The notes beneath the pieces were generated by a model. That model was not told where the DNA came from. It made no database searches and worked only from the letters and a program-made list of their open reading frames with translations. A program made the translations under genes and the position numbers. A DNA stretch of 38,741 nt from Candidatus Hydrogenedentota bacterium (GTDB taxonomy: Bacteria > Hydrogenedentota > Hydrogenedentia > Hydrogenedentales > JAEUWI01): positions 1 through 38,741 of the forward strand of contig JACPGE010000022.1 of NCBI GenBank assembly GCA_016182605.1, written 5' to 3'. Position 1 is the stretch's first letter. The number at the start of each line of letters is the position of its first letter. Shown in pieces: positions 23,902-33,484 of the stretch.

Positions 23902-24678
23902 TCACTTGCTCTCTTCCTGAGCCTTGATCCGCTTCACCAGTTCGCTGAGTTGAATCACCTCCGTCGCCTTCATCCGGTACACGCTCAGGATATAGCCCTC
24001 GTCCAGCTCCTCACCCACGTCCATCTTGCCGTACACCGCTATGGGCATGTCCGAGATAAAGTCGGCATGCGCCCCCTCGGCCATCTCCACCATAAGCCAT
24101 TCGTTTACCGCCGGCGGCACGCCATAACAGCAAAACGCCTGGTTCTGTGTCAGCGCAAAGGCCGTCAGAAGCCCCTTCTCGTTGATCTCGATCGGGACCA
24201 TAAAACCGATGATCAATACGTCCTGTTGATGCAGCGCCTTGATTTCCTTCGGAATCTGATCCCCCAGTACGGTCCGCGGGTCGGCCGCCTTGGCCACCGC
24301 ATCAGGATCGGGCACTTCGTAGGTGTAGATCCCCAGTTGGTTGAAGCTCACCTTGAAGTACTTGCCGTCTTTCGTCTTCTTGAAGTCCAGATCGTCGGAG
24401 TTCAGCCCAATCGCGCCACCCTCTTTCTCCAGCAGGTCGAAAGAAGACTGTGGAATGGCCCGTATCGGCTGCCCGTATTCGTCGTACTGCTTCTGGTCCA
24501 GCGCGAGCGGGTCTTCCGTTGCGCCATCTCCCGTGGTCTCCTGGGGCGTCAGGGGCGCGCCCTGCAGGGGCTTGCCGCGCAATTCCTTGTTCTCATCCTG
24601 CGCACTCACCGTAACGAGGGACATAAACAGCGCGCACGCGGCGAAGGTGTAAGTGACTCGGAGTAAGCGATGTTTCAT
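23902..24678 (-). CDS. DUF3299 family exported protein (PA4066-like)
   Basis: A 258-residue protein. The ATG at 24678 has AGGAAA upstream and begins a signal peptide (MKHRLLRVTYTFAACALFMS through VSA). The C-terminal two-thirds match DUF3299: FNQLGIYTYEVPDPD, then DVLIIGFMVPIEINEKGLLT, TQNQAFCCYGVPPAVNEWL with the family's CC motif, and ADFISDMPIAVYGKMDVGEE. DUF3299 proteins are periplasmic and are commonly encoded with an ABC ATPase and an FtsX-type permease in Zur-controlled operons (PA4063-PA4066 in Pseudomonas aeruginosa; related to the zrg genes of Vibrio cholerae). The same pair precedes it here, 90 bases upstream, supporting a role in zinc acquisition or handling. The paired cysteines may take part in metal or disulfide chemistry. 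Confidence 0.8.
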   Translation of the reverse strand: MKHRLLRVTYTFAACALFMSLVTVSAQDENKELRGKPLQGAPLTPQETTGDGATEDPLALDQKQYDEYGQPIRAIPQSSFDLLEKEGGAIGLNSDDLDFKKTKDGKYFKVSFNQLGIYTYEVPDPDAVAKAADPRTVLGDQIPKEIKALHQQDVLIIGFMVPIEINEKGLLTAFALTQNQAFCCYGVPPAVNEWLMVEMAEGAHADFISDMPIAVYGKMDVGEELDEGYILSVYRMKATEVIQLSELVKRIKAQEESK

Positions 24679-24723
24679 AACGGAATTTCCTGTACTGCAA
24701 TGGGGTCCAAGGCGGGTCCGGCC

Positions 24724-24732
24724 AGTATAGCA
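24724..24732 (-). promoter_or_regulatory. Possible extended -10 promoter for the DUF3299 gene
   Basis: On the minus strand the sequence reads TGCTATACT, an extended -10 (TGnTATAAT) with one or two mismatches, about 46 bases before the ATG. No clear -35 is seen. It would allow DUF3299 to be transcribed apart from the upstream ABC genes. Confidence 0.35.
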
Positions 24733-24768
24733 TAGCGCAGGTGGCCTTTCCGGCACGCCAGATCGGAC

Positions 24769-26028
24769 TCACGAATGAGGCGCCAGGTTTTCCGCCACAT
24801 CCGTGCTGTAAGCGCGGATGGCCGGTATCACGCCGGACAAGGCGCCCAGAAGCACCATCCCCAAAGGCGTCAGGTACAAGGACGGATGCAGCGTCGTCGC
24901 GTTCAGCACCACGCCCGTCTGCTGGCGCACCACCTGCGCCGCCACCAGCAGAATTGCGCCGTAGCATACGAAGCCGCACAACGACCCCAGCGCCGCGATA
25001 CAGGCCGATTCCACCACAATCGCCGAGAAGACTGTGCGGCGCCGCGCGCCCAGCGCCCGCAGAATGGCAAACTCGCGTTTGCGTTCGTTGATCGTGTTGT
25101 AAATGCTCGCCGTAATCGCCGCCGCGGATACAAACACCACAAGATACGCGACCAACTCCAGGATGCGGTTCACCCACCCGACCTTGTTGAAGAGATCGAG
25201 CATCACCGTGCCGATGGGATGCGCCAGCGTCGCCACCTTGCCCTGCTTGTTGATCATCTGGTCGAGCTGCCAGCCCACTTGGGGGCTCTTCAGCTTCAGC
25301 ATCACCGCGCTCACTTCCTTGTGCGCGTCGGGAATGGCAGCGACCGCGTCCGCGGTAAATTGTTCGCCCGTGCCGCGCAGTACGTGACCCGTCATGCGAA
25401 AGATCCCCTCGATGGGAATCCAGATCACCCGATCCGATGGCGTATTCGTCGTGTCCATGATCCCCACCACCGTATACTCTTCCGGGTGCCGCGCATTCGG
25501 ATCGAAATAGATGCCGTGAAACGGATTGAAGGTGTCCCCCAGCTTCAAACCCGTCTGCTCCGACACCACACTCCCGATCACCGCCTCCGCATAGCCCTCG
25601 TCAAAAGGTCTTCCCCCCTCAAGAATCGCGTACTTGCGCCCCTTCTTGTACTCAAACTTCGTGAAGATCTCCGGCGTGCTTCCCACGATCCGGTTCCCCA
25701 TGTAGTTGTCGCCCGTGGCGTAGGGAATCGCCAGCTCCACCCCGGGATACTTGTCGCGCAACTCCGTGTACAGCGTCCACGGAATGTTGCCCGGCGAAGT
25801 CTCCAGGTGAAACACCGTGTTCAGCACCAGTTGAAGCTGGCTGCCCCGCGCACCAACCACGGCATCAAATCCCAAATCGCCGCCCGTAAAGGCCTCGCGC
25901 GACTGGCTCTGAATGCTGAAGACGGACATCGTCAGCCCGCTCGCAAGCGCGATCGACAAGACCGTGATGGTGGTCGAAAAGAGATGCTGGCGCAGGCTCC
26001 GGCGCACGATAAGCAGGATGCCGCGCAT
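24769..26028 (-). CDS. FtsX/MacB-type ABC transporter permease (PA4065-like)
   Basis: A 419-residue permease. The ATG at 26028 overlaps the ATPase stop as TAATG, so the two are translationally coupled; this also rules out the longer frame to 26082. One N-terminal membrane segment (TTITVLSIALASGLTMSVFS) is followed by a periplasmic region with DAVVGARGSQLQLVLNTVFH and SPGNIPWTLYTEL, a pattern characteristic of the PA4065/zrg-type permeases. Three further segments lie in the C-terminal FtsX domain (LVAYLVVFVSAAAITASIYN, CIAALGSLCGFVCYGAILLV, LTPLGMVLLGALSGVIPAIR) with the cytoplasmic coupling segment NERKREFAILRALGARRRTV. MacB-type transporters move material by mechanotransmission rather than by carrying small solutes across the membrane, so a direct zinc-import role should not be assumed. 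The genes around it are zinc-related. Confidence 0.85.
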   Translation of the reverse strand: MRGILLIVRRSLRQHLFSTTITVLSIALASGLTMSVFSIQSQSREAFTGGDLGFDAVVGARGSQLQLVLNTVFHLETSPGNIPWTLYTELRDKYPGVELAIPYATGDNYMGNRIVGSTPEIFTKFEYKKGRKYAILEGGRPFDEGYAEAVIGSVVSEQTGLKLGDTFNPFHGIYFDPNARHPEEYTVVGIMDTTNTPSDRVIWIPIEGIFRMTGHVLRGTGEQFTADAVAAIPDAHKEVSAVMLKLKSPQVGWQLDQMINKQGKVATLAHPIGTVMLDLFNKVGWVNRILELVAYLVVFVSAAAITASIYNTINERKREFAILRALGARRRTVFSAIVVESACIAALGSLCGFVCYGAILLVAAQVVRQQTGVVLNATTLHPSLYLTPLGMVLLGALSGVIPAIRAYSTDVAENLAPHS

Positions 26029-26711
26029 TATCCCCCCGCCCCCCCAGTAAAAGCCCGGTTGAGCCCCAGAAAATCGGTACAACTATCAAATTGCTCCAGC
26101 ACGCCTTCGTCGTGGCTCACCAGCAGCAGGGCCGCACCCGATTCCGCGCAGATTTCCCGGATAAGCCGCAGGGCCTCCCGCGCGTGCACCGGATCCAGGT
26201 TGCCCGTGGGTTCATCGGCCAGCACCAGCTTCGGATGGTTCGCCAGGGCCCGCGCCACAGCCACGCGCTGCTGCTGCCCCACGGAGAGCTGACGCGGACG
26301 ATAGTGCATGCGGTCGGCCAGCCCCACCTTGTGCAGCAGTTGCTCGGCATAGGCACGGTCGCTGCCCTTGCCAAACATCATGCCAAGCGTCACATTCTCT
26401 AGCGCGGTATAGCCCTGGAGCAGGTTGAAGGTCTGGAATACATAGCCGAAGGAATTTGCCCGGATACTGTCGCGCTGCGATTCGCTCAACGCGGCGATGT
26501 CCCGTCCTTCGAGACGAATCTGGCCCTGGTCCGGCTTCAGAATCCCCGCAATCAGGTTCAAGAAGGTGGTCTTCCCCGAGCCGGACGCGCCGCGCAACGC
26601 CACGTGTTGTCCGGGCGTCATCGTAAAGGCGGGAATGTCCACGATAAGGGTCTGTTCGCCCGTGGGCGCACGAAATCCCTTTCGAAGCTGCTCAATTTCA
26701 AGTAGGTTCAT
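26028..26711 (-). CDS. ABC transporter ATP-binding protein (MacB/LolD type)
   Basis: A 227-residue ATPase. The ATG at 26711 has AAGGGG upstream and begins directly with MNLLEIEQLRKGF; upstream residues in the longer frame overlap the pilin gene. Walker A is GASGSGKT (residues 41-48), Q-loop in YVFQTFNLLQGYTALENV, signature LSVGQQQRVAVARALA, Walker B LVLADEPTGNLD and the H-loop in LLLVSHDEG. The YVFQ-x-FNLL and NLD features are those of the MacB/LolD/FtsE subclass, which pairs with FtsX-type permeases such as the next gene. It energises that permease from the cytoplasm. It lies 80 bases after the pilin-like gene, with a perfect hairpin in the gap. Confidence 0.9.
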   Translation of the reverse strand: MNLLEIEQLRKGFRAPTGEQTLIVDIPAFTMTPGQHVALRGASGSGKTTFLNLIAGILKPDQGQIRLEGRDIAALSESQRDSIRANSFGYVFQTFNLLQGYTALENVTLGMMFGKGSDRAYAEQLLHKVGLADRMHYRPRQLSVGQQQRVAVARALANHPKLVLADEPTGNLDPVHAREALRLIREICAESGAALLLVSHDEGVLEQFDSCTDFLGLNRAFTGGAGG

Positions 26712-26751
26712 GATCCCCTTGATCGTCTCAAGTTGCAGGGGGCCATTGCAA

Positions 26752-26781
26752 GGCGGCGCAGTACACGCGTACTGCGCCGCC
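26752..26781. other. Perfect 13-bp hairpin between pilin and ABC genes
   Basis: GGCGGCGCAGTAC (26752-26764) pairs exactly with GTACTGCGCCGCC (26769-26781) around ACGC. On the minus strand it follows the pilin stop at once. There is no T-tract, so it could be a transcript-stabilising 3' stem, a factor-dependent attenuator or a site that lowers expression of the ABC genes relative to the pilin. Confidence 0.65.
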
Positions 26782-26791
26782 CCAGATCTCG

Positions 26792-27709
26792 TCAATGGCC
26801 GCTGTGATCGTGGCCGCCGCCTTCCCCCGCTTCGTGCAGCAAAAAGCCGCCCAAATTCACCGGAAACGGATTCGTTTCCTCCGCGCCGGCAACCCACTTG
26901 ATAAAGGACACGTGCCCATCCATATACAGCACGTTGGCGCCCCCCGGTATGTGGTTATAGTGAGACGCCTCTTCCGACACCGCATCATGCATGGTGACGA
27001 TCGACGACTGCGCCTCCGCGCTACCCGCTGGATTGTTGATGTCCGTAATGAAGAAGCGCTCTATTCCCTCGCGCATGCGGTAGAACACCTCGGCGCCGTT
27101 CACGGGAACCGGCGTGCCCCCGTCGTCCAGCAACTCCCAGTCGCTATCCGATAGGCCGTAGTCCCCATCCACGATCGCCTCCCCAAGGGATTCAATCGCC
27201 GCAGCTAAATTGTCGAAGTCCTGCGTCGTCGCGAAGTTGCTGTCGGCCATCGCCCAGCCGTAGTAATAGTAGGGCTCGACCGTCAACTCGCACGGCTCTA
27301 CGATGCCGTTGTTCGAGAAGCCCACCACTTCTTCCCACAACGGGCTGACCGTGTTGCCTTCGTCCCACGTTTCCAGCGCGTCTCCCCCCGCGGATGCGCT
27401 CGGGCAGATCATCACTTCCCAGTCGCTCAGATACTCGGGATAAATCGAGGCGGCATTCGGCGTCGCATTCCAGGGCTGCGCCTCGCCCGCGCAATTGAAC
27501 ACCTTGATCGAGGGAAACTTCTCCCCTTTGGACTCGTTGGCATACATCTTGAACACAATCCCCATCTGCTTGAGATTGTTCTGGCAACTGGCCCGGCGCG
27601 CTGCTTCCCGGGCGCGCGCAAGCGCAGGCAACAGAATGGCCGCAAGGATACCGATGATGGCGATGACTACAAGCAATTCGATTAACGTAAAACCTGTCTT
27701 CTTGGACAT
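26792..27709 (-). CDS. Prepilin-like protein with His-rich C-terminal tail
   Basis: A 305-residue protein with a type IV pilin/type II secretion leader: MSKKTG cut before [20 protein letters not shown], with Glu at mature position 5, then [20 protein letters not shown]. Near the C-terminus [20 protein letters not shown] is the variant of the DG motif found in such proteins from Planctomycetes, Verrucomicrobia and relatives. The last residues are [13 protein letters not shown], a flexible Gly/His tail like metal-binding tails. AGGAG lies 9 bases upstream of the ATG. No secretin or assembly genes are nearby. It sits between a His/Cys-rich exported protein and an ABC module of the kind usually preceded by a zinc-binding periplasmic protein, which suggests a metal-binding surface role; this last step is inference. 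Confidence 0.9.
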
Positions 27710-27850: not shown

Positions 27851-28210
27851 CTAGTGGTGTTTGCAGACAGGAGGGCCACGGGCAGGAGCGCGTGAGGTTA
27901 TCGCTGCGTCCGGGATCAGTCCTGGGGCCGCGGGAATCCAAAGCTTGCCCACCGTGCTCAGGCACGCCGGCGCCTCGAAAACCAGCGGGAAATCCTGGCC
28001 CGTGTTCCGGGCGCAAAACGCACAGTGCTCGGAATACCAGGTCTCCGAGGGCTCCTCCGGACAGGATTCCGCAATTACTGTGCCCTGCTCCGCACACGAC
28101 CCATCGACCTGCATTCCATGCCCGTGAAAGAAGTGCAGGTGCATCGGCAGGGCCACCCCGCTCAAGAGCAGGGTGAGCACCAAGGCCATATTGAGTTTTG
28201 CGCGTTTCAT
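27851..28210 (-). CDS. Small His/Cys-rich exported protein (DUF2946-like)
   Basis: A 119-residue protein. The ATG at 28210 has GGAG 4 bases upstream and gives a signal peptide (MKRAKLNMALVLTLLLSGVA); the frame to 28246 adds only residues overlapping the operator site. Directly after the signal comes HLHFFHGHGM, then scattered cysteines, EHCAFCARN with a C-x-x-C, and a C-terminal CKHH. The spacing of an N-terminal His cluster and a CPFC-like motif resembles DUF2946 proteins, small exported proteins often found next to metal transport genes. It lies 92 bases downstream of znuB and 141 bases upstream of the pilin-like gene, on the same strand. A promoter and an operator-like site precede it, so it is probably induced with zinc uptake and binds the metal. 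Confidence 0.65.
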   Translation of the reverse strand: MKRAKLNMALVLTLLLSGVALPMHLHFFHGHGMQVDGSCAEQGTVIAESCPEEPSETWYSEHCAFCARNTGQDFPLVFEAPACLSTVGKLWIPAAPGLIPDAAITSRAPARGPPVCKHH

Positions 28211-28247: not shown

Positions 28248-28266
28248 TAATGATATCCAATTCTCA
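28248..28266. promoter_or_regulatory. Operator-like site 2 (putative Zur box), overlapping a -10
   Basis: TAATGATATCCAATTCTCA matches the site between zur and znuA (TAATGATAACGTATTTTCA) at 15 of 19 positions. The core TGATATC-n2-ATTCTCA is an imperfect inverted repeat of the kind bound by Fur-family dimers. It covers the -10 of the promoter below, where a repressor would block polymerase. Confidence 0.6.
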
Positions 28267-28278
28267 CTTTGTGCGCAA
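28250..28278 (-). promoter_or_regulatory. Promoter of the His/Cys-rich protein gene
   Basis: On the minus strand TTGCGC (28273-28278) and TATCAT (28250-28255) are separated by 17 bases. The -10 lies inside the putative Zur box. Confidence 0.5.
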
Positions 28279-28302
28279 GCACTTTCTTGGAACTCCCACC
28301 GA

Positions 28303-29109
28303 TCAATGCCGCCGGATCAGCATCCGAGCGGCCAAGCTCAAAAAGAAGATTCCCGTCTGCAACAGGATGATCGCCGGACCGCTGGGCAGGCTCAACGGGT
28401 GCGAGGCCAAGAGCCCGACGATCGTCGTGGCAAAACCCAGGATCATCGCCATGACCGTCATGCCAGCAAAACTCCGCGCAAAAACCCGCGCCGTCGCCGC
28501 CGGTAATACCAGGAAAGCCGAGAACAGGATGATGCCCACAAGTTTCATGCATACCACAATCGTCAGGGCGAGACAGGCCTGCAACACGTAATCATGGAGG
28601 CGTACAGACACCCGGTCCACCACCGCCAGATTGCGATCGAAGGTGGCATAGGCCCAACTCCCCCAAAAGGGCCACAACGCCAGCGATCCCACGCACACCG
28701 CCAGCGCCACCCACAAGTCGGCCGGCTGAATCGCCAGAATACTGCCAAACAAGTAACTGAACGCGTCCCGGCTGTACGCGTCCGATTGATACAAAAAAAC
28801 TATCCCCAGCGCCATGGCCGCGGAAAAAAAGATCCCGATGATCGTGTCGGACTGCAAGGTGCTGTTGTGCTGAATGGCGGTGATACCGATCGAGACCAGC
28901 ACCGTGAAGGGCAGCGCCGTCCACAGCGGCTCCAAGTGCAGCAGCACCCCCAGCGCAACCCCGCCAAACGCCGCGTGCGCCAATCCGCTCCCCAAAAATG
29001 CCATGCGCCGCTGCACCACGAGTGGACCGAAAAAGTTCGCGAGATAGGCCACCATCAAGGCGCCCAGAAGCGCCCGCTGCATAAACGGCATGCCAAGCAC
29101 TTCAAGCAT
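28303..29109 (-). CDS. znuB: Zinc/manganese-type ABC transporter permease
   Basis: A 268-residue permease of the ABC-3 family. The ATG at 29109 has AAGGGG 8 bases upstream and overlaps the end of znuC by eight bases. Seven to eight membrane segments are visible, with family motifs FMQRALLGALMVAYLANFFG, PLVVQRRMAFLGSGLAHAAF (the conserved G-D/G-x-L-x-H-A segment), SDTIIGIFFSAAMALGI, FSYLFGSILAI and KLVGIILFSAFLVLPAATA. The final helix includes the conserved proline in SLPSGPAIILLQTGIFFLSL. It forms the inner-membrane channel for metal delivered by the lipoprotein ZnuA. Zinc rather than manganese is favoured by the His-rich loop of the binding protein and the adjacent Fur-family regulator and zinc exporter. 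Confidence 0.9.
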   Translation of the reverse strand: MLEVLGMPFMQRALLGALMVAYLANFFGPLVVQRRMAFLGSGLAHAAFGGVALGVLLHLEPLWTALPFTVLVSIGITAIQHNSTLQSDTIIGIFFSAAMALGIVFLYQSDAYSRDAFSYLFGSILAIQPADLWVALAVCVGSLALWPFWGSWAYATFDRNLAVVDRVSVRLHDYVLQACLALTIVVCMKLVGIILFSAFLVLPAATARVFARSFAGMTVMAMILGFATTIVGLLASHPLSLPSGPAIILLQTGIFFLSLAARMLIRRH

Positions 29110-29854
29110 GGTGGTGCCCCTTGTGCGAGTCGCGCAGGTGCCCCGTGTGTCCGAAGACCTCCAACAACAGTTCTTCGCGCGCCGCAAACTCCGGCTTGCC
29201 CACGGCGACGATCTCCTTGTTGAGCAGCAAGACCTGCGACGCGTGAAGCCGCGCCCCTTCCCAGTCATGCGTGATCAGCACCACCGTGGCGCCACTCTCC
29301 CGCTGGTAGGCAAGAAGCTGGTGGTGCAGTTGCCCTTCCGCGGCAATATCCATCCCCGCCGCGGGCTCATCAAGTACGATCAACTGGGGCTTCCGGATAA
29401 GCGCACGCGCCAGATAGACCCGCTGCAGTTCCCCGCCCGAAAGCGATCCCAGCGATTGATGCTGCAAGCGTTCAATTCCCAGCACCTCCAGTTGCAACGC
29501 TACCAGGCTCCGCTCCTTGCGATTCACCCGCCAGGGCCAGCCGCGCCGCAGCCCAGACACCACAAACTCCTCCACCCGCGCAGGAAACTCCACCTCGAAA
29601 TACTTGCGCTGGGGCACATAGCTCAAAAGTTGCGGCGGATACTTCACCGGCAGTCCGCCATAGACCTCGACCCGCCCCGTGCTCGGCTGCTCCAGGCCCA
29701 GGATCATGCGTATCAACGTGGTCTTGCCCGCCCCATTGGGTCCGATAATCGCTAAATGTTCCCCGGCCACCAAGTCAAACGTGATGTCCCGAAGGATCGC
29801 GTGGGGTCCAATCTGAAATCCCAGGGCTTGGCACGATACCGCCGGCGCACTCAT
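29102..29854 (-). CDS. znuC: Zinc ABC transporter ATP-binding protein
   Basis: A 250-residue ATPase. The ATG at 29854 overlaps the znuA stop as ATGA; the longer frame to 30145 lies wholly in znuA and is rejected. Walker A is GPNGAGKT (residues 38-45), Q-loop LLSYVPQRKYFEVEF with the VPQR seen in metal-type ABC-3 ATPases, signature SLSGGELQRVYLARAL, Walker B LIVLDEPAAGMD and H-loop VLITHDW. The last residues, HTGHLRDSHKGHHHA, are His-rich; ZnuC proteins often end this way, and the tail may bind cytoplasmic zinc for feedback. It powers ZnuB. Confidence 0.93.
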   Translation of the reverse strand: MSAPAVSCQALGFQIGPHAILRDITFDLVAGEHLAIIGPNGAGKTTLIRMILGLEQPSTGRVEVYGGLPVKYPPQLLSYVPQRKYFEVEFPARVEEFVVSGLRRGWPWRVNRKERSLVALQLEVLGIERLQHQSLGSLSGGELQRVYLARALIRKPQLIVLDEPAAGMDIAAEGQLHHQLLAYQRESGATVVLITHDWEGARLHASQVLLLNKEIVAVGKPEFAAREELLLEVFGHTGHLRDSHKGHHHA

Positions 29855-30759
29855 GACAAGGCCTTCTGCAGCACGGCGGCATTTTTTCGCATCAAATCTT
29901 CGTACATTGTTGCGCCTATCGACCCGCCAAGCGGATCGATCTCCACCACGGGCACGCCCGCGGCATCGGCCACCGCCTGCACCGGTCCCCGTGCTAATTG
30001 CGGCTCGGTGAGCAATATGCGCGTCTGTGTCTCTTTGAGACGATTGATGATCGCCTCCATCGACCTCGGGCTCAGCTCTTTGCCGGGACTCGGCTCGATT
30101 ATCGCCGTCACTTCCAATCCGTAACGCCGCAGGAAGTAGAGCCACGAAGGATGAAAGACGGCCACCTTCCGATGTGCGATCCCGGCGAACTGCGCCTTGA
30201 TCTCCGCGTCCAACGCCCTCAGCTTCCCCTCCAGCGCCTGTGCATTGTCCGCAAAGGCAGTCGCCTTCTCGGGCAACAACCGGCCCAATTCCAGCGCCAA
30301 CGGCATTGCCACTTCCATTACTGCTGCTGGATCCGGCCAGAAATGCGGATCGATATGTCCGTGCCCGTGTCCGTCCTCCTCCATCAACACATCCTCGGGC
30401 ATCTTCAAGCGCAGGGATTCAGGCAACAGTCCCATCGCTGCAATCCTGTGCGGACTGCCGATCTGCGCAATCCAACCGTCCAGCTCCGGCGATACATAGA
30501 CCAAGGTTAGCGCGTGCTGCGCCGCCACTGCATCCGCGGGCGTGGGCGTATAGGTGTGCGGCGAATCGTTTGGACGCAGCAACGATCGGGCTTCGATACT
30601 GCCGCCCGTGATCTCGTCCACGATCAACTTCATGGGATGAATGGAACACAAGATCTCGGGCTGCCGTTGGGGCGCGTCCCCACATCCAGTGAGCGCGAAG
30701 AGCGCCAAAACGGATTGGATTGCACGCAAAAATAATTGATGTTGAGATCGTAGTTTCAA
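29851..30759 (-). CDS. znuA: Zinc ABC transporter substrate-binding lipoprotein
   Basis: A 302-residue cluster A-I binding protein. The signal ends in a lipobox, LTGC with Cys26, so it is a lipoprotein. Probable metal ligands are His68 (NDSPHTYTPTP), His139 (DPHFWPDP), His203 (FHPSW) and Asp275 (EIDPLGG). A short His-rich loop, HGHGHIDPH at 131-139, is typical of zinc-specific members and absent from manganese ones. The start is a TTG at 30759: an in-frame stop lies five codons upstream and no ATG fits, so initiation is probably weak; the nearest ribosome-like sequence, AGGAA, is 14 bases upstream. It is the first gene of znuACB and is divergent from the Fur-family gene across a shared regulatory region. 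Confidence 0.92.
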   Translation of the reverse strand: MKLRSQHQLFLRAIQSVLALFALTGCGDAPQRQPEILCSIHPMKLIVDEITGGSIEARSLLRPNDSPHTYTPTPADAVAAQHALTLVYVSPELDGWIAQIGSPHRIAAMGLLPESLRLKMPEDVLMEEDGHGHGHIDPHFWPDPAAVMEVAMPLALELGRLLPEKATAFADNAQALEGKLRALDAEIKAQFAGIAHRKVAVFHPSWLYFLRRYGLEVTAIIEPSPGKELSPRSMEAIINRLKETQTRILLTEPQLARGPVQAVADAAGVPVVEIDPLGGSIGATMYEDLMRKNAAVLQKALS

Positions 30760-30814
30760 TGGACTAAGTCGTTATTCCTGCGGCACTTTCGTTCCGCATT
30801 CGCCCTCTGAATTT

Positions 30815-30825
30815 GCTATAGTATA
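30815..30825. promoter_or_regulatory. Divergent promoter core for zur and znuA
   Basis: On the plus strand TGCTATAGT (30814-30822 region) is an extended -10 for the Fur-family gene. On the minus strand TATACT (30820-30825) is a good -10 for znuA, with TCATTA (30843-30848) as a weak -35 at 17 bases. The two promoters overlap, so one bound regulator could control both. Confidence 0.5.
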
Positions 30826-30842
30826 GACGCCAAGCCGAATCC

Positions 30843-30861
30843 TAATGATAACGTATTTTCA
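30843..30861. promoter_or_regulatory. Operator-like site 1 (putative Zur box) between zur and znuA
   Basis: TAATGATAACGTATTTTCA contains an imperfect inverted repeat, TGATAAC-GT-ATTTTCA, with the size and A/T-rich arms of Fur-family sites. It covers the -35 of the znuA promoter and lies just downstream of the expected zur transcription start. A near copy (15/19) occurs at 28248-28266. Confidence 0.65.
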
Positions 30862-30889
30862 ATAGCAACTGCAAGGAGTTCCTTCGTAC

Positions 30890-31258
30890 GTGCTGCGAAA
30901 AACCATTCAGCGTGACGCCATTCGAAAGGCACTCGTCCATGCCGCGCGTCCACTCACCACGCAAGAGATCCTTGAGACCGCCCAAGAGGAGGTGCCCCAG
31001 ATAGGTATCGCCACGGTATACCGCACCGTAAAAACGCTCGCGGAAGAAGGCTCGATTCGCACCGTGGTGGTCCCCGGCGAGCCAGACCGCTACGAAGTCT
31101 CCGGCAAGGCCCACCACCACCATTTCAGTTGCCGCGTCTGTGGCCGCATGTTCGAAATGGATGGTTGCCCCGTGGGACTCGAGAATCTGGTGCCCAAGGG
31201 ATTCCTCATGGAAGATCACGAGGTCTTCATCTATGGCCGTTGCGATGAATGTAACTGA
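30890..31258 (+). CDS. zur: Fur-family metal regulator, probably Zur
   Basis: A 122-residue regulator with a GTG start at 30890, preceded by AAGGAG at 11 bases. The N-terminal winged helix spans about residues 5-65 (RPLTTQEILETAQEEVPQIG, ATVYRTVKTLAEEGSI, the latter being the recognition helix). The metal-sensing part has KAHHHHFSC (His75-78), and a structural zinc site from Cys81/Cys84 (CRVC) and Cys118/Cys121 (CDEC) at the extreme C-terminus. It would bind DNA when loaded with metal. The gene is divergent from znuACB and 21 bases upstream of a zinc-exporting ATPase, so zinc is the likely co-repressor, though the sequence alone does not separate Zur from Fur or PerR. Confidence 0.85.
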   Translation: MLRKTIQRDAIRKALVHAARPLTTQEILETAQEEVPQIGIATVYRTVKTLAEEGSIRTVVVPGEPDRYEVSGKAHHHHFSCRVCGRMFEMDGCPVGLENLVPKGFLMEDHEVFIYGRCDECN

Positions 31259-31279: not shown

Positions 31280-33484
31280 ATGAGCACCAAGACCCTCCTC
31301 TTTCACATCGAAGGGCTCGACTGCCCCAACGAAGTGCGCCAGCTCAAGCGCGCGCTCACCGGCGTCGTTCCCGATGTGGAGTCCGTACGCTTCGACACCC
31401 TCAAGGGCACCATGGCCCTCGAACTCGGGAACGGAGCCTGCACCCAGTTGCGCATTGAAGAAGCTGTCACAAGCACCGGAATGAAAGCGGTCTGTCTCTC
31501 CGGCGGTGCGCCTGCCACCATCCCCAAAACGCACCCGTGGAAGAATCCCCACCTCATCGTTTCCGTTGCCGCCTTTGCACTTGCCGTCGCCGCCGTGGGG
31601 GTCGAATTGCTTGCCAGCTTCTTCCCCATTCCCGAAACTGCCACCGGCGTGCCCTGGCCCGCTGTCGCGCTCTTCGTCGCGGCAACCCTGCTGGGACTGC
31701 GCTTCATCGCCATCAAGGCTTTCTACGCCCTCAAGAATCTCGCCCCTGACATCCATCTCCTCGTCGTTATCGCCGCGCTCGGCGCGCTTCTACTCGGAGA
31801 GTGGTTTGAAGCGGCCGCGGTCTCCTCGCTCTTTGCCTTCTCCCTCTTCCTCGAATCTTGGAGCACAGGCCGCGCACGCCATGCTATCGCGGCGCTTATG
31901 GAGGTCGCCCCAGACACCGCACGCTACCTGAAGAACGGCGCCGAGACCCTCGTGCCCGCTTCGACGATAGTCACCGGCGACCGCCTGCGCGTATTGCCTG
32001 GCGAACGCATTCCCGTGGACGCGCGCGTACTCGCTGGGATCAGTTCCGTGGACGAATCAACCCTCACCGGTGAGAGCCGCCCTGTATCCAAAGCGCCCGG
32101 AGATCCCGTTTACGCCGGCACGCTCAATCAGGAAAGCGCCTTCGAACTCGAAGCCCTTAACGACACCGCCCACTCCAGTCTCGCGCGCATCATGCATCTG
32201 GTGGAAGAGGCCCAGCTCCGCCGCGCGCCCGTCGAACAGTTCGTCGATAGATTCGCCCGCATCTATACCCCGCTCATGATGGCCGTTGCCCTGCTCGCTT
32301 TCTTGGGCCTCCCAATCGCCGCCGCATATACCTGGCCCGAAGCTTTCTACGCCGCCCTCGTCATCCTCCTCATCGCATGCCCCTGCGCCCTCGTCATCTC
32401 TACCCCCGTAAGCATCGTCGCCGGGCTCGCCCGCGCCGCCCGCGAAGGCGTCCTCATCAAGGGCGGCATTCACCTGGAAACCCCCGCCCGCCTCAAGGTC
32501 ATCGCGCTGGACAAGACCGGCACCCTCACCACGGGGCGCATGACGGTGAGCGCCGTCGAGCCCCTCGCAGACTGGACCATGCACGAGCTTCTCGCGCATG
32601 CGGCTTCCGTGGAGGCCCAAAGCACCCACCCCATCGCACAAGCGATCCTTCAGTATGCACACACCCAGGGAGTCGCCGTGGATGCGGTGGAAGCCCACAC
32701 CAATCTCCCCGGCAAAGGTGCGCAGGTTACGCGGGCTGGACACACCGCTTGGGCCGGAAACGTGCGCATGCTCAAGGCCATGCTCGGAGAAGCCGCTGTA
32801 CTCCCCGAAGGCGCACTCGCCGCAGAGGCCCGTGGCAAAACGGTCGTGCTCATCGGCGATGCGAAGGAAGTGATGGGCTTCATCGTCTGCGAAGACGCGC
32901 CGCGCCCGGAAAGCCGCGCAGCCATTGAGGCGCTCCACAATGCCGGTATCGATTCCGTCGTCATGCTCACCGGCGACAACCGCATGACTGCCGACGCCAT
33001 CGCCCTGGCCGTCGGGGCCGACGCCGTCTACGCGGAGTTGCTGCCCGAACACAAAGTGGAGACGGTGCGCGCACTGAAGCAGCAATACGGCTGTATCGCC
33101 ATGGTCGGCGATGGCATCAACGACGCCCCGGCCCTCGCCGCGGCCGACGTCTCCATCGCCATGGGCGCCATGGGCAGCGACGCCGCCCTCGAAACCGCCG
33201 ACATCGCGCTCATGGCCGACGACCTCTCCCGGCTGCCCTGGTTGATTGGCCATTCCCGCAGGACCATGCGCATTATCCGGCAGAACATCGTCATCGCACT
33301 GGGACTGAAAGGCGCGGTTGCAGTGCTTGCCCTCTTTGGGATCGCCACCCTCTGGCTAGCCGTCCTCTCCGATATGGGCGCCTCACTCATCGTCATCGCC
33401 AACGGCCTCCGCCTCCTGCGGACCCCTGCCCCCGCGCCTGCAAAAAAGCCCTGCTGCTGCCCGGAAAACCACGGAACCCCATAG
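31280..33484 (+). CDS. zntA: P1B-2 type Zn/Cd/Pb-exporting ATPase
   Basis: A 734-residue P-type ATPase. It has one N-terminal heavy-metal-associated domain (about residues 5-70) with GLDCPNE, the CadA-type DCxxE variant with a single cysteine. About eight membrane helices follow. Key sites: translocation motif CPC (Cys367-Pro-Cys369), phosphorylation site DKTGT (Asp411), the HP motif in STHPIAQAI, and GDGINDAP (Asp611). Helix 7 has a lysine (LGLKGAVAV) and helix 8 [17 protein letters not shown] with an Asp, the ligand set of zinc/cadmium/lead exporters. The C-terminus ends in a CCC cluster ([11 protein letters not shown]), another possible metal site. It sits 21 bases after the Fur-family gene and is probably co-transcribed, which would couple export with the regulator of uptake. 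Confidence 0.93.

What the first reader, a model, noticed from the sequence alone, without database searches (positions are those of the whole stretch)
28248..30861. Two matching operator-like sites define a candidate Zur motif
Seen: TAATGATAACGTATTTTCA (30843-30861) and TAATGATATCCAATTCTCA (28248-28266) agree at 15 of 19 positions. Both hold an imperfect inverted repeat TGATAnC-n2-ATTnTCA. One covers the -35 of the znuA promoter, the other the -10 in front of the His/Cys-rich gene. Two such matches in exactly the intergenic regions of zinc genes are unlikely to be chance. The motif is not the Zur box of E. coli or Bacillus.
Basis: seen in the sequence. Interest (0 to 1): 0.66.

Follow-up and report, generated by a model that had tools for sequence, protein, structure and literature searches.

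The report
Zinc-repressor (Zur) operator in Hydrogenedentota
The two matching sites are very probably the DNA switches of the zinc-sensing repressor Zur in an uncultured bacterium; the same 22-base switch sits before zinc-uptake genes in its relatives and before zur-type genes in other phyla, so it is an ordinary kind of regulator that shows which less-known genes (including a pilin-like protein) belong to the zinc-starvation response.

Summary
Observation confirmed: the two sites exist as described (15/19 identical). They are the two best sites in the 6.76-Mb genome, though the models partly derive from them. The organism is a Candidatus Hydrogenedentota member. It lies at a similar place before the zur ortholog in about a dozen relatives. 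In relatives it is enriched about six-fold over a mirrored control. Nearly all good hits flank zinc-type genes: znuA, zur-zntA, LolD-FtsX transporters, MerC, His-rich secreted proteins. The same operator precedes 25 of 76 zur-like genes, mostly from other phyla (0-2 with shuffled motifs). Best explanation: the Fur-family protein at 30890-31258 is Zur, and zinc-bound Zur represses the znuABC/zur divergon and a zrg-like second unit. This is a new member of a known kind: the half-site equals that of Corynebacterium Zur (10-1-10), and a 16-bp Zur motif is reported upstream of proteobacterial zepA. The least expected part is a His-tailed DUF1559 pilin in the second unit. Zinc-dependent binding was not tested.

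The parts
30843..30864 (.). Zur operator 1 (22-bp palindrome TAATGATAACGTATTTTCAATA) in the divergent znuA / zur promoter region
   Evidence: conserved upstream of zur orthologs in about a dozen relatives
28248..28269 (.). Zur operator 2 (TAATGATATCCAATTCTCACTT; weaker right arm) upstream of the zrg-like unit
   Evidence: E 1.1, second and last hit at E<=10 in the genome
30890..31258 (+). zur: Fur-family metalloregulator, 122 aa, CxxC...CxxC, HHHHFxCxxC, invariant extra Cys93
   Evidence: PF01475 74.6 bits; alignment of 25 orthologs; the other three Fur paralogs sit by ferritin/peroxiredoxin, katG and Dps
31280..33484 (+). zntA-like heavy-metal P-type ATPase directly downstream of zur
   Evidence: TIGR01525 592.9 bits; same order in relatives
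29851..30759 (-). znuA, zinc ABC transporter substrate-binding protein
   Evidence: PF01297 196 bits
29102..29854 (-). znuC, ATPase
   Evidence: best NCBIfam AztA, below its cut-off; PF00005
28303..29109 (-). znuB, permease
   Evidence: PF00950 218.5 bits
27851..28210 (-). small secreted His/CxxC protein with a C-terminal RGPP (DUF2946-like by pattern); first gene behind operator 2
   Evidence: no Pfam hit itself; similar Zur-box-linked proteins in relatives reach DUF2946 only below the cut-off (E 0.04-0.11)
26792..27709 (-). DUF1559 type IV pilin-like protein with His-rich C-terminal tail ([14 protein letters not shown])
   Evidence: PF07596 and N_methyl; tail has more His than any own-genome paralog examined; close homologs behind Zur boxes in relatives
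26028..26897 (-). LolD-type ATPase (ZrgC position); true start probably further downstream than the longest ORF
   Evidence: TIGR02211 186.7 bits, below the LolD cut-off
24769..26082 (-). FtsX/MacB-type permease (ZrgB position)
   Evidence: PF02687, PF12704
23902..24756 (-). DUF3299 protein (ZrgE position)
   Evidence: PF11736 35 bits; conserved LolD-FtsX-DUF3299 order in relatives
30814..30822 (+). extended -10 (TGCTATAGT) of the zur promoter; operator 1 begins 20 bp downstream
   Evidence: TG(or C)nTA-type extended -10 found 20-33 bp upstream of the operator in the window and 10 relatives

Best explanation
The two sites are operators for the Fur-family protein encoded at 30890-31258, which is the zinc uptake regulator Zur of this Candidatus Hydrogenedentota bacterium. 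Each is a 22-bp even palindrome (TAATGATAAynnrTTATCATTA) bound by a zinc-loaded Zur dimer (binding inferred). At operator 1 Zur would block both divergent promoters: it covers the -35 region of leftward znuABC and lies just downstream of the conserved extended -10 of rightward zur(-zntA). At operator 2 it would cover the -10 of the leftward transcription unit that begins with the small His/CxxC protein and the His-tailed DUF1559 pilin and is followed by LolD-FtsX-DUF3299. When zinc falls, Zur releases its metal and DNA, and the ZnuABC importer and a second, zrg-like zinc acquisition system are expressed. Shown by sequence: the motif, its conservation, its genomic specificity and its gene neighbours. 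Inferred: zinc-dependent binding, repression, promoter positions, and that the whole second gene run is one transcript.
For: Site conserved at a similar distance before zur orthologs found by protein search alone, with a conserved extended -10 upstream of it. Relatives scan with <=1 mismatch: 40 matches against 6 for the mirrored pattern. About 29 of 32 distinct E<0.1 hits flank znuA, zur, LolD-FtsX, His-rich secreted protein, pilin or MerC genes. The 4-bp gap of TGATAA-n-TTATCA stands out: 17 sites against 3-8 for each other gap from 0 to 9, and 16 of those 17 are in genomes with the ortholog. Motif and ortholog co-occur: 20/29 against 5/31 genomes, Fisher p 4e-5. Upstream sites in 25 of 76 orthologs mostly from other phyla, against 0-2 for 20 column-shuffled motifs, beside zinc-type genes such as TonB receptors, a COG0523 GTPase, MerC and a His-rich protein (identified by eye). 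The other three Fur paralogs of this genome lie next to ferritin/peroxiredoxin, katG and Dps.
Against: No binding or expression data. Operator 2 is weak in its right arm (E 1.1 in the own genome), and closely related LolD-FtsX-DUF3299 operons in other genomes had no detectable site. No NCBIfam equivalog reaches its cut-off for the regulator. The consensus promoter scan did not call the proposed promoters. A zntA-type exporter behind zur is a puzzling target for a zinc-activated repressor.
Confidence: 0.9

Rival explanations
1. The sites are operators of another Fur paralog (an iron Fur or a PerR) with a Fur-box-like half-site, and the zinc genes are secondary targets.
For: The half-site TAATGATAA resembles the classical Fur box GATAATGATnATCATTATC (consensus quoted in PMC545781); the genome has three other Fur-family genes.
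Against: The neighbours of the motif are zinc-type genes, with no siderophore, ferritin or peroxide genes among the annotated hits. The motif co-occurs with this ortholog and sits at this ortholog's own promoter in several phyla. Spacing is even (4-bp core gap), not the odd Fur spacing.
Confidence: 0.06
2. Chance resemblance between two AT-rich intergenic stretches.
Against: Conservation, enrichment and gene context in 60 relatives and in other phyla.
Confidence: 0.02
3. Operator 1 is a true Zur site but operator 2 is a decayed or chance site, so the small His/Cys-pilin unit is not in the regulon here.
For: Operator 2 scores low (E 1.1) and its right arm CACTT departs from CATTA.
Against: It is the second-best site in 6.76 Mb and precedes a gene type whose relatives carry boxes in other genomes (L182, L183, L221, L230, L231, L236, L239, L240).
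Confidence: 0.1

Closest known systems
Actinobacterial Zur box (Corynebacterium glutamicum, 21-bp 10-1-10; PMC2823685)
   Same: Half-site TAATGATAAC is identical (cg0042 site TAATGATAACGGTTATCATTT); it regulates znu genes.
   Different: Centre is 1 bp there and 2 bp here (10-2-10), so the two half-sites sit one base further apart.
16-bp 'motif 2' upstream of proteobacterial zepA, proposed as a Zur-binding site (PMC10957091)
   Same: Even 16-bp palindrome, highly similar to the 15-bp cyanobacterial motif and proposed for Zur; our core TGATAAynnrTTATCA is also 16 bp and is found upstream of betaproteobacterial orthologs.
   Different: The logo letters could not be read here; the target gene differs; no sign that the paper treats Hydrogenedentota.
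E. coli Zur box (TRWNAYRWTATAWYRTNWCA, quoted in PMC6103462) and the Gram-positive-type ZUR consensus (TAAATCGTAATnATTACGATTTA, quoted in PMC545781)
   Same: AT-rich palindromes at zinc-uptake promoters.
   Different: Half-site letters and spacing differ.
Vibrio zrgABCDE zinc uptake operon (PMC9817125)
   Same: Zur-regulated ABC ATPase, permease and DUF3299 (ZrgE) with a small protein and a zinc-binding protein; the window has small His/CxxC protein, LolD, FtsX and DUF3299.
   Different: No DUF2796 (ZrgA) or DUF2607 (ZrgD) was found; a His-tailed DUF1559 pilin stands where a zinc-binding protein would be.

Membership tests
Zur (zinc-sensing Fur family) | Fur-family fold and sequence | tested here: met
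   PF01475 74.6 bits, cut-off 23.1; solved relatives include 3mwm and M. tuberculosis FurB, but also Fur and PerR
Zur (zinc-sensing Fur family) | Structural zinc site CxxC...CxxC | tested here: met
   C81, C84, C118, C121 invariant in 25 orthologs
Zur (zinc-sensing Fur family) | Regulatory zinc site with a Cys ligand | tested here: inconclusive
   No Cys at the place of the Cys just before HHHH in 3mwm (alignment); an invariant Cys93 and His75-77 and His110 exist but no structure was made
Zur (zinc-sensing Fur family) | Curated equivalog model passed | tested here: inconclusive
   No NCBIfam equivalog reaches its cut-off; best is PerR-type at 56.6 against 180 bits; no Zur equivalog is among the listed hits
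Zur (zinc-sensing Fur family) | Operator present upstream of zinc uptake genes | tested here: met
Zur (zinc-sensing Fur family) | Zinc-dependent DNA binding and repression | not testable with these tools
   needs protein and cells
Actinobacterial 10-1-10 Zur box | 21-bp palindrome with 1-bp centre | tested here: not met
   4-bp core gap (22 bp in all) dominates, 17 sites against 6 with the 3-bp gap
Iron Fur box | GATAATGATnATCATTATC spacing, iron genes downstream | tested here: not met
   even spacing; zinc-type neighbours
zrgABCDE operon | ABC ATPase + permease + DUF3299 together | tested here: met
   window 23902-26897; conserved in relatives
zrgABCDE operon | DUF2796 (ZrgA) and DUF2607 (ZrgD) components | tested here: not met
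   no such Pfam hit in the small protein or in the pilin

The most novel reading that the evidence does not exclude
In Hydrogenedentota a type IV pilin-like DUF1559 protein with a His-rich tail has been recruited into the zinc-starvation regulon and serves as the surface or periplasmic zinc-binding component of a zrg-like transporter, in the place that ZrgA has in Vibrio; one planctomycete (L155) also has a prepilin-type gene divergent from zur across a perfect Zur box.
Probability: 0.3. Interest if true: 0.65.

Novelty: new member of a known kind. Interest (0 to 1): 0.42.

Why it matters
It gives a testable Zur operator and a predicted zinc-starvation regulon for a phylum known almost only from MAGs. 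It supplies a motif with even 10-2-10 spacing tied to a Fur-family clade that is spread over many phyla. It also suggests zinc roles for poorly understood proteins: LolD-FtsX-DUF3299 transporters, small DUF2946-like His/CxxC proteins, His-rich lipoproteins, MerC, and a His-tailed pilin.

Tried and rejected
The 19-mer with 3 mismatches is uninformative genome-wide (17 against 15 control). The consensus promoter scan did not detect the proposed promoters. Searching papers for the motif letters found none, and no held paper joins Zur with DUF1559. Cupriavidus metallidurans papers read here did not print the Zur box letters. AT-rich genomes of family f7 gave many chance hits and were discounted. 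Limits: the annotation of hits was not exhaustive (G025:C17 not examined; G015:C31 and G019:C24 not zinc-type), and the gap spectrum used only the listed part of a truncated table.

Full report
Observation. They lie in the two short gaps that matter: between divergent znuA (29851-30759, minus) and a Fur-family gene (30890-31258, plus), and between znuB and a small His/Cys gene (27851-28210, minus). Taken alone the pair is only moderately surprising: resampling the two gaps gives a match as good in 1.2% of trials.

Own genome. The window is contig 73 of a 6.76-Mb genome. The consensus has just these two hits at 0-2 mismatches, and at 3 mismatches it is background (17 against 15 for the mirrored pattern). 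A sequence profile built from 25 sites of other genomes returns exactly the two window sites at E<=10: site 1 at E 0.005 and site 2 at E 1.1. The genome has four Fur-family genes. The other three lie next to ferritin and a peroxiredoxin, next to katG, and next to a Dps gene (identities read from the protein sequences by eye), so the one in this window is the only one in a zinc setting.

Relatives. Orthologs of the regulator were found by protein search alone. In about a dozen of them a similar site stands at a similar distance upstream of the gene, and an extended -10 (TGnTATAnT type) stands 20-33 bp further upstream. The sites together show a 22-bp even palindrome, TAATGATAAynnrTTATCATTA. Across the genomes there are 40 matches at <=1 mismatch against 6 for the mirrored control. 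When the half-sites TGATAA and TTATCA are allowed any gap from 0 to 9, the 4-bp gap stands out with 17 sites against 3-8 for each other gap; 16 of those 17 are in genomes that have the ortholog (the table was truncated). The motif co-occurs with the ortholog, 20 of 29 against 5 of 31 genomes (Fisher p 4e-5; relatedness of the genomes is not corrected for).

Regulon. By my count about 29 of the 32 distinct profile hits with E<0.1 flank zinc-type genes. The classes are: znuA(BC) and the zur(-zntA) divergon; LolD-FtsX transporters, at least once followed by a DUF3299 match (L234); small secreted proteins with His-rich stretches, a CxxC and a C-terminal RGPP or RAPP (DUF2946-like, below the Pfam cut-off); DUF1559 pilins next to such proteins; His-rich lipoproteins; and MerC proteins. 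Exceptions are G015:C31, G019:C24 and the unexamined G025:C17. Several of these identities rest on sequence read by eye or on a match to the window's own proteins.

Other phyla. Contig titles identify the close relatives as Candidatus Hydrogenedentota. Among 76 orthologs mostly from other phyla, 25 have a site of at least 15 bits in the 250 bp upstream; 20 column-shuffled symmetric motifs gave 0-2. Hit density is 27 in 19 kb upstream against 17 in 774 kb elsewhere. Good sites occur in Janthinobacterium, Massilia, Marinobacterium, Zwartia, Gemmatimonadetes MAGs, a Phycisphaeraceae MAG and Meiothermus. Neighbours there include TonB receptors, a COG0523 GTPase, a MerC protein and a His-rich protein (identified by eye).

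Mechanism. Operator 1 covers 30843-30864. For leftward znuA a -10 TATACT (30825-30820) with a 17-bp spacer puts the -35 at 30848-30843, inside the operator. For rightward zur the extended -10 TGCTATAGT (30814-30822) puts the operator at about +13 to +34. Operator 2 covers a plausible -10 TATCAT (28255-28250) with -35 TTGCGC (28278-28273). These promoter positions are my reading; the automatic scan did not call them. Zinc-bound Zur would therefore block both units and release them when zinc is scarce. This is the standard mode for Zur (review PMC6103462); zinc-dependent binding here is inferred.

The second unit. Behind operator 2 come the small His/CxxC protein, a DUF1559 pilin with a His-rich tail, and then LolD, FtsX and DUF3299. 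In Vibrio the zinc-responsive zrg operon holds an ABC ATPase, a permease, a DUF3299 protein (ZrgE), DUF2796 (ZrgA) and DUF2607 (ZrgD) (PMC9817125). The window matches the transporter and DUF3299 parts but lacks recognisable ZrgA and ZrgD. The pilin is one of many DUF1559 paralogs in this genome and has the most His-rich C-terminus of those examined. It may stand in for ZrgA; that is a hypothesis. One caution: in several relatives the closely similar LolD-FtsX-DUF3299 operon has no detectable site.

Comparison. The half-site TAATGATAAC is that of Corynebacterium Zur (TAATGATAACGGTTATCATTT, 10-1-10; PMC2823685); here the centre is 2 bp. A 16-bp motif upstream of proteobacterial zepA, proposed as a Zur site, is reported in PMC10957091; its letters could not be read. 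I therefore file it as a new member of a known kind.

Open points. A zntA-type exporter directly behind zur, under the same operator, is an odd target for a zinc-activated repressor. The regulator has an invariant Cys93 that may replace the Cys ligand seen elsewhere in Zur. Neither was resolved.

Noticed in passing
window 31280-33484: A zntA-type P-type ATPase (probable zinc exporter) follows zur by 22 bp, here and in relatives, so it would be repressed when zinc is plentiful; no second promoter was identified.
   Followed up: partly
window 26792-27709; L057, L064, L184, L236: DUF1559 pilin-like proteins behind Zur boxes; the window copy and those of L057 and L236 have His-rich C-terminal tails, others do not. 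The own genome has many DUF1559 paralogs.
   Followed up: partly
L155:5894-5979: In a Phycisphaeraceae MAG a prepilin-type gene is divergent from the zur ortholog across a perfect palindrome TAACGATAATGCATTATCGTTA; it was the only one of 80 loci with a prepilin motif.
   Followed up: partly
L188:4168-4677, L189:3973-4476, L135 near 5911: MerC-family membrane proteins behind Zur boxes in two Hydrogenedentota and, by eye, in a Gemmatimonadetes MAG, suggesting a zinc role for MerC relatives.
   Followed up: no
L187:741-1277, L186:765-1514, L222:2651-3298: His-rich lipoproteins of one apparent family (GCP...HHHDHPxLxGxWQRVS) behind Zur boxes in three genomes; the two copies searched had no Pfam match.
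   Followed up: no
window 30890-31258 (Cys93): The regulator clade has an invariant extra Cys (GCP) not aligned with a Cys in the three own-genome paralogs; it may be a regulatory-site ligand.
   Followed up: no
L241:4025: A strong Zur-box-like site (TAATGATAACATATTATCATTT) lies between a phosphodiesterase-like gene and a sulfatase-like gene in G015.
   Followed up: no
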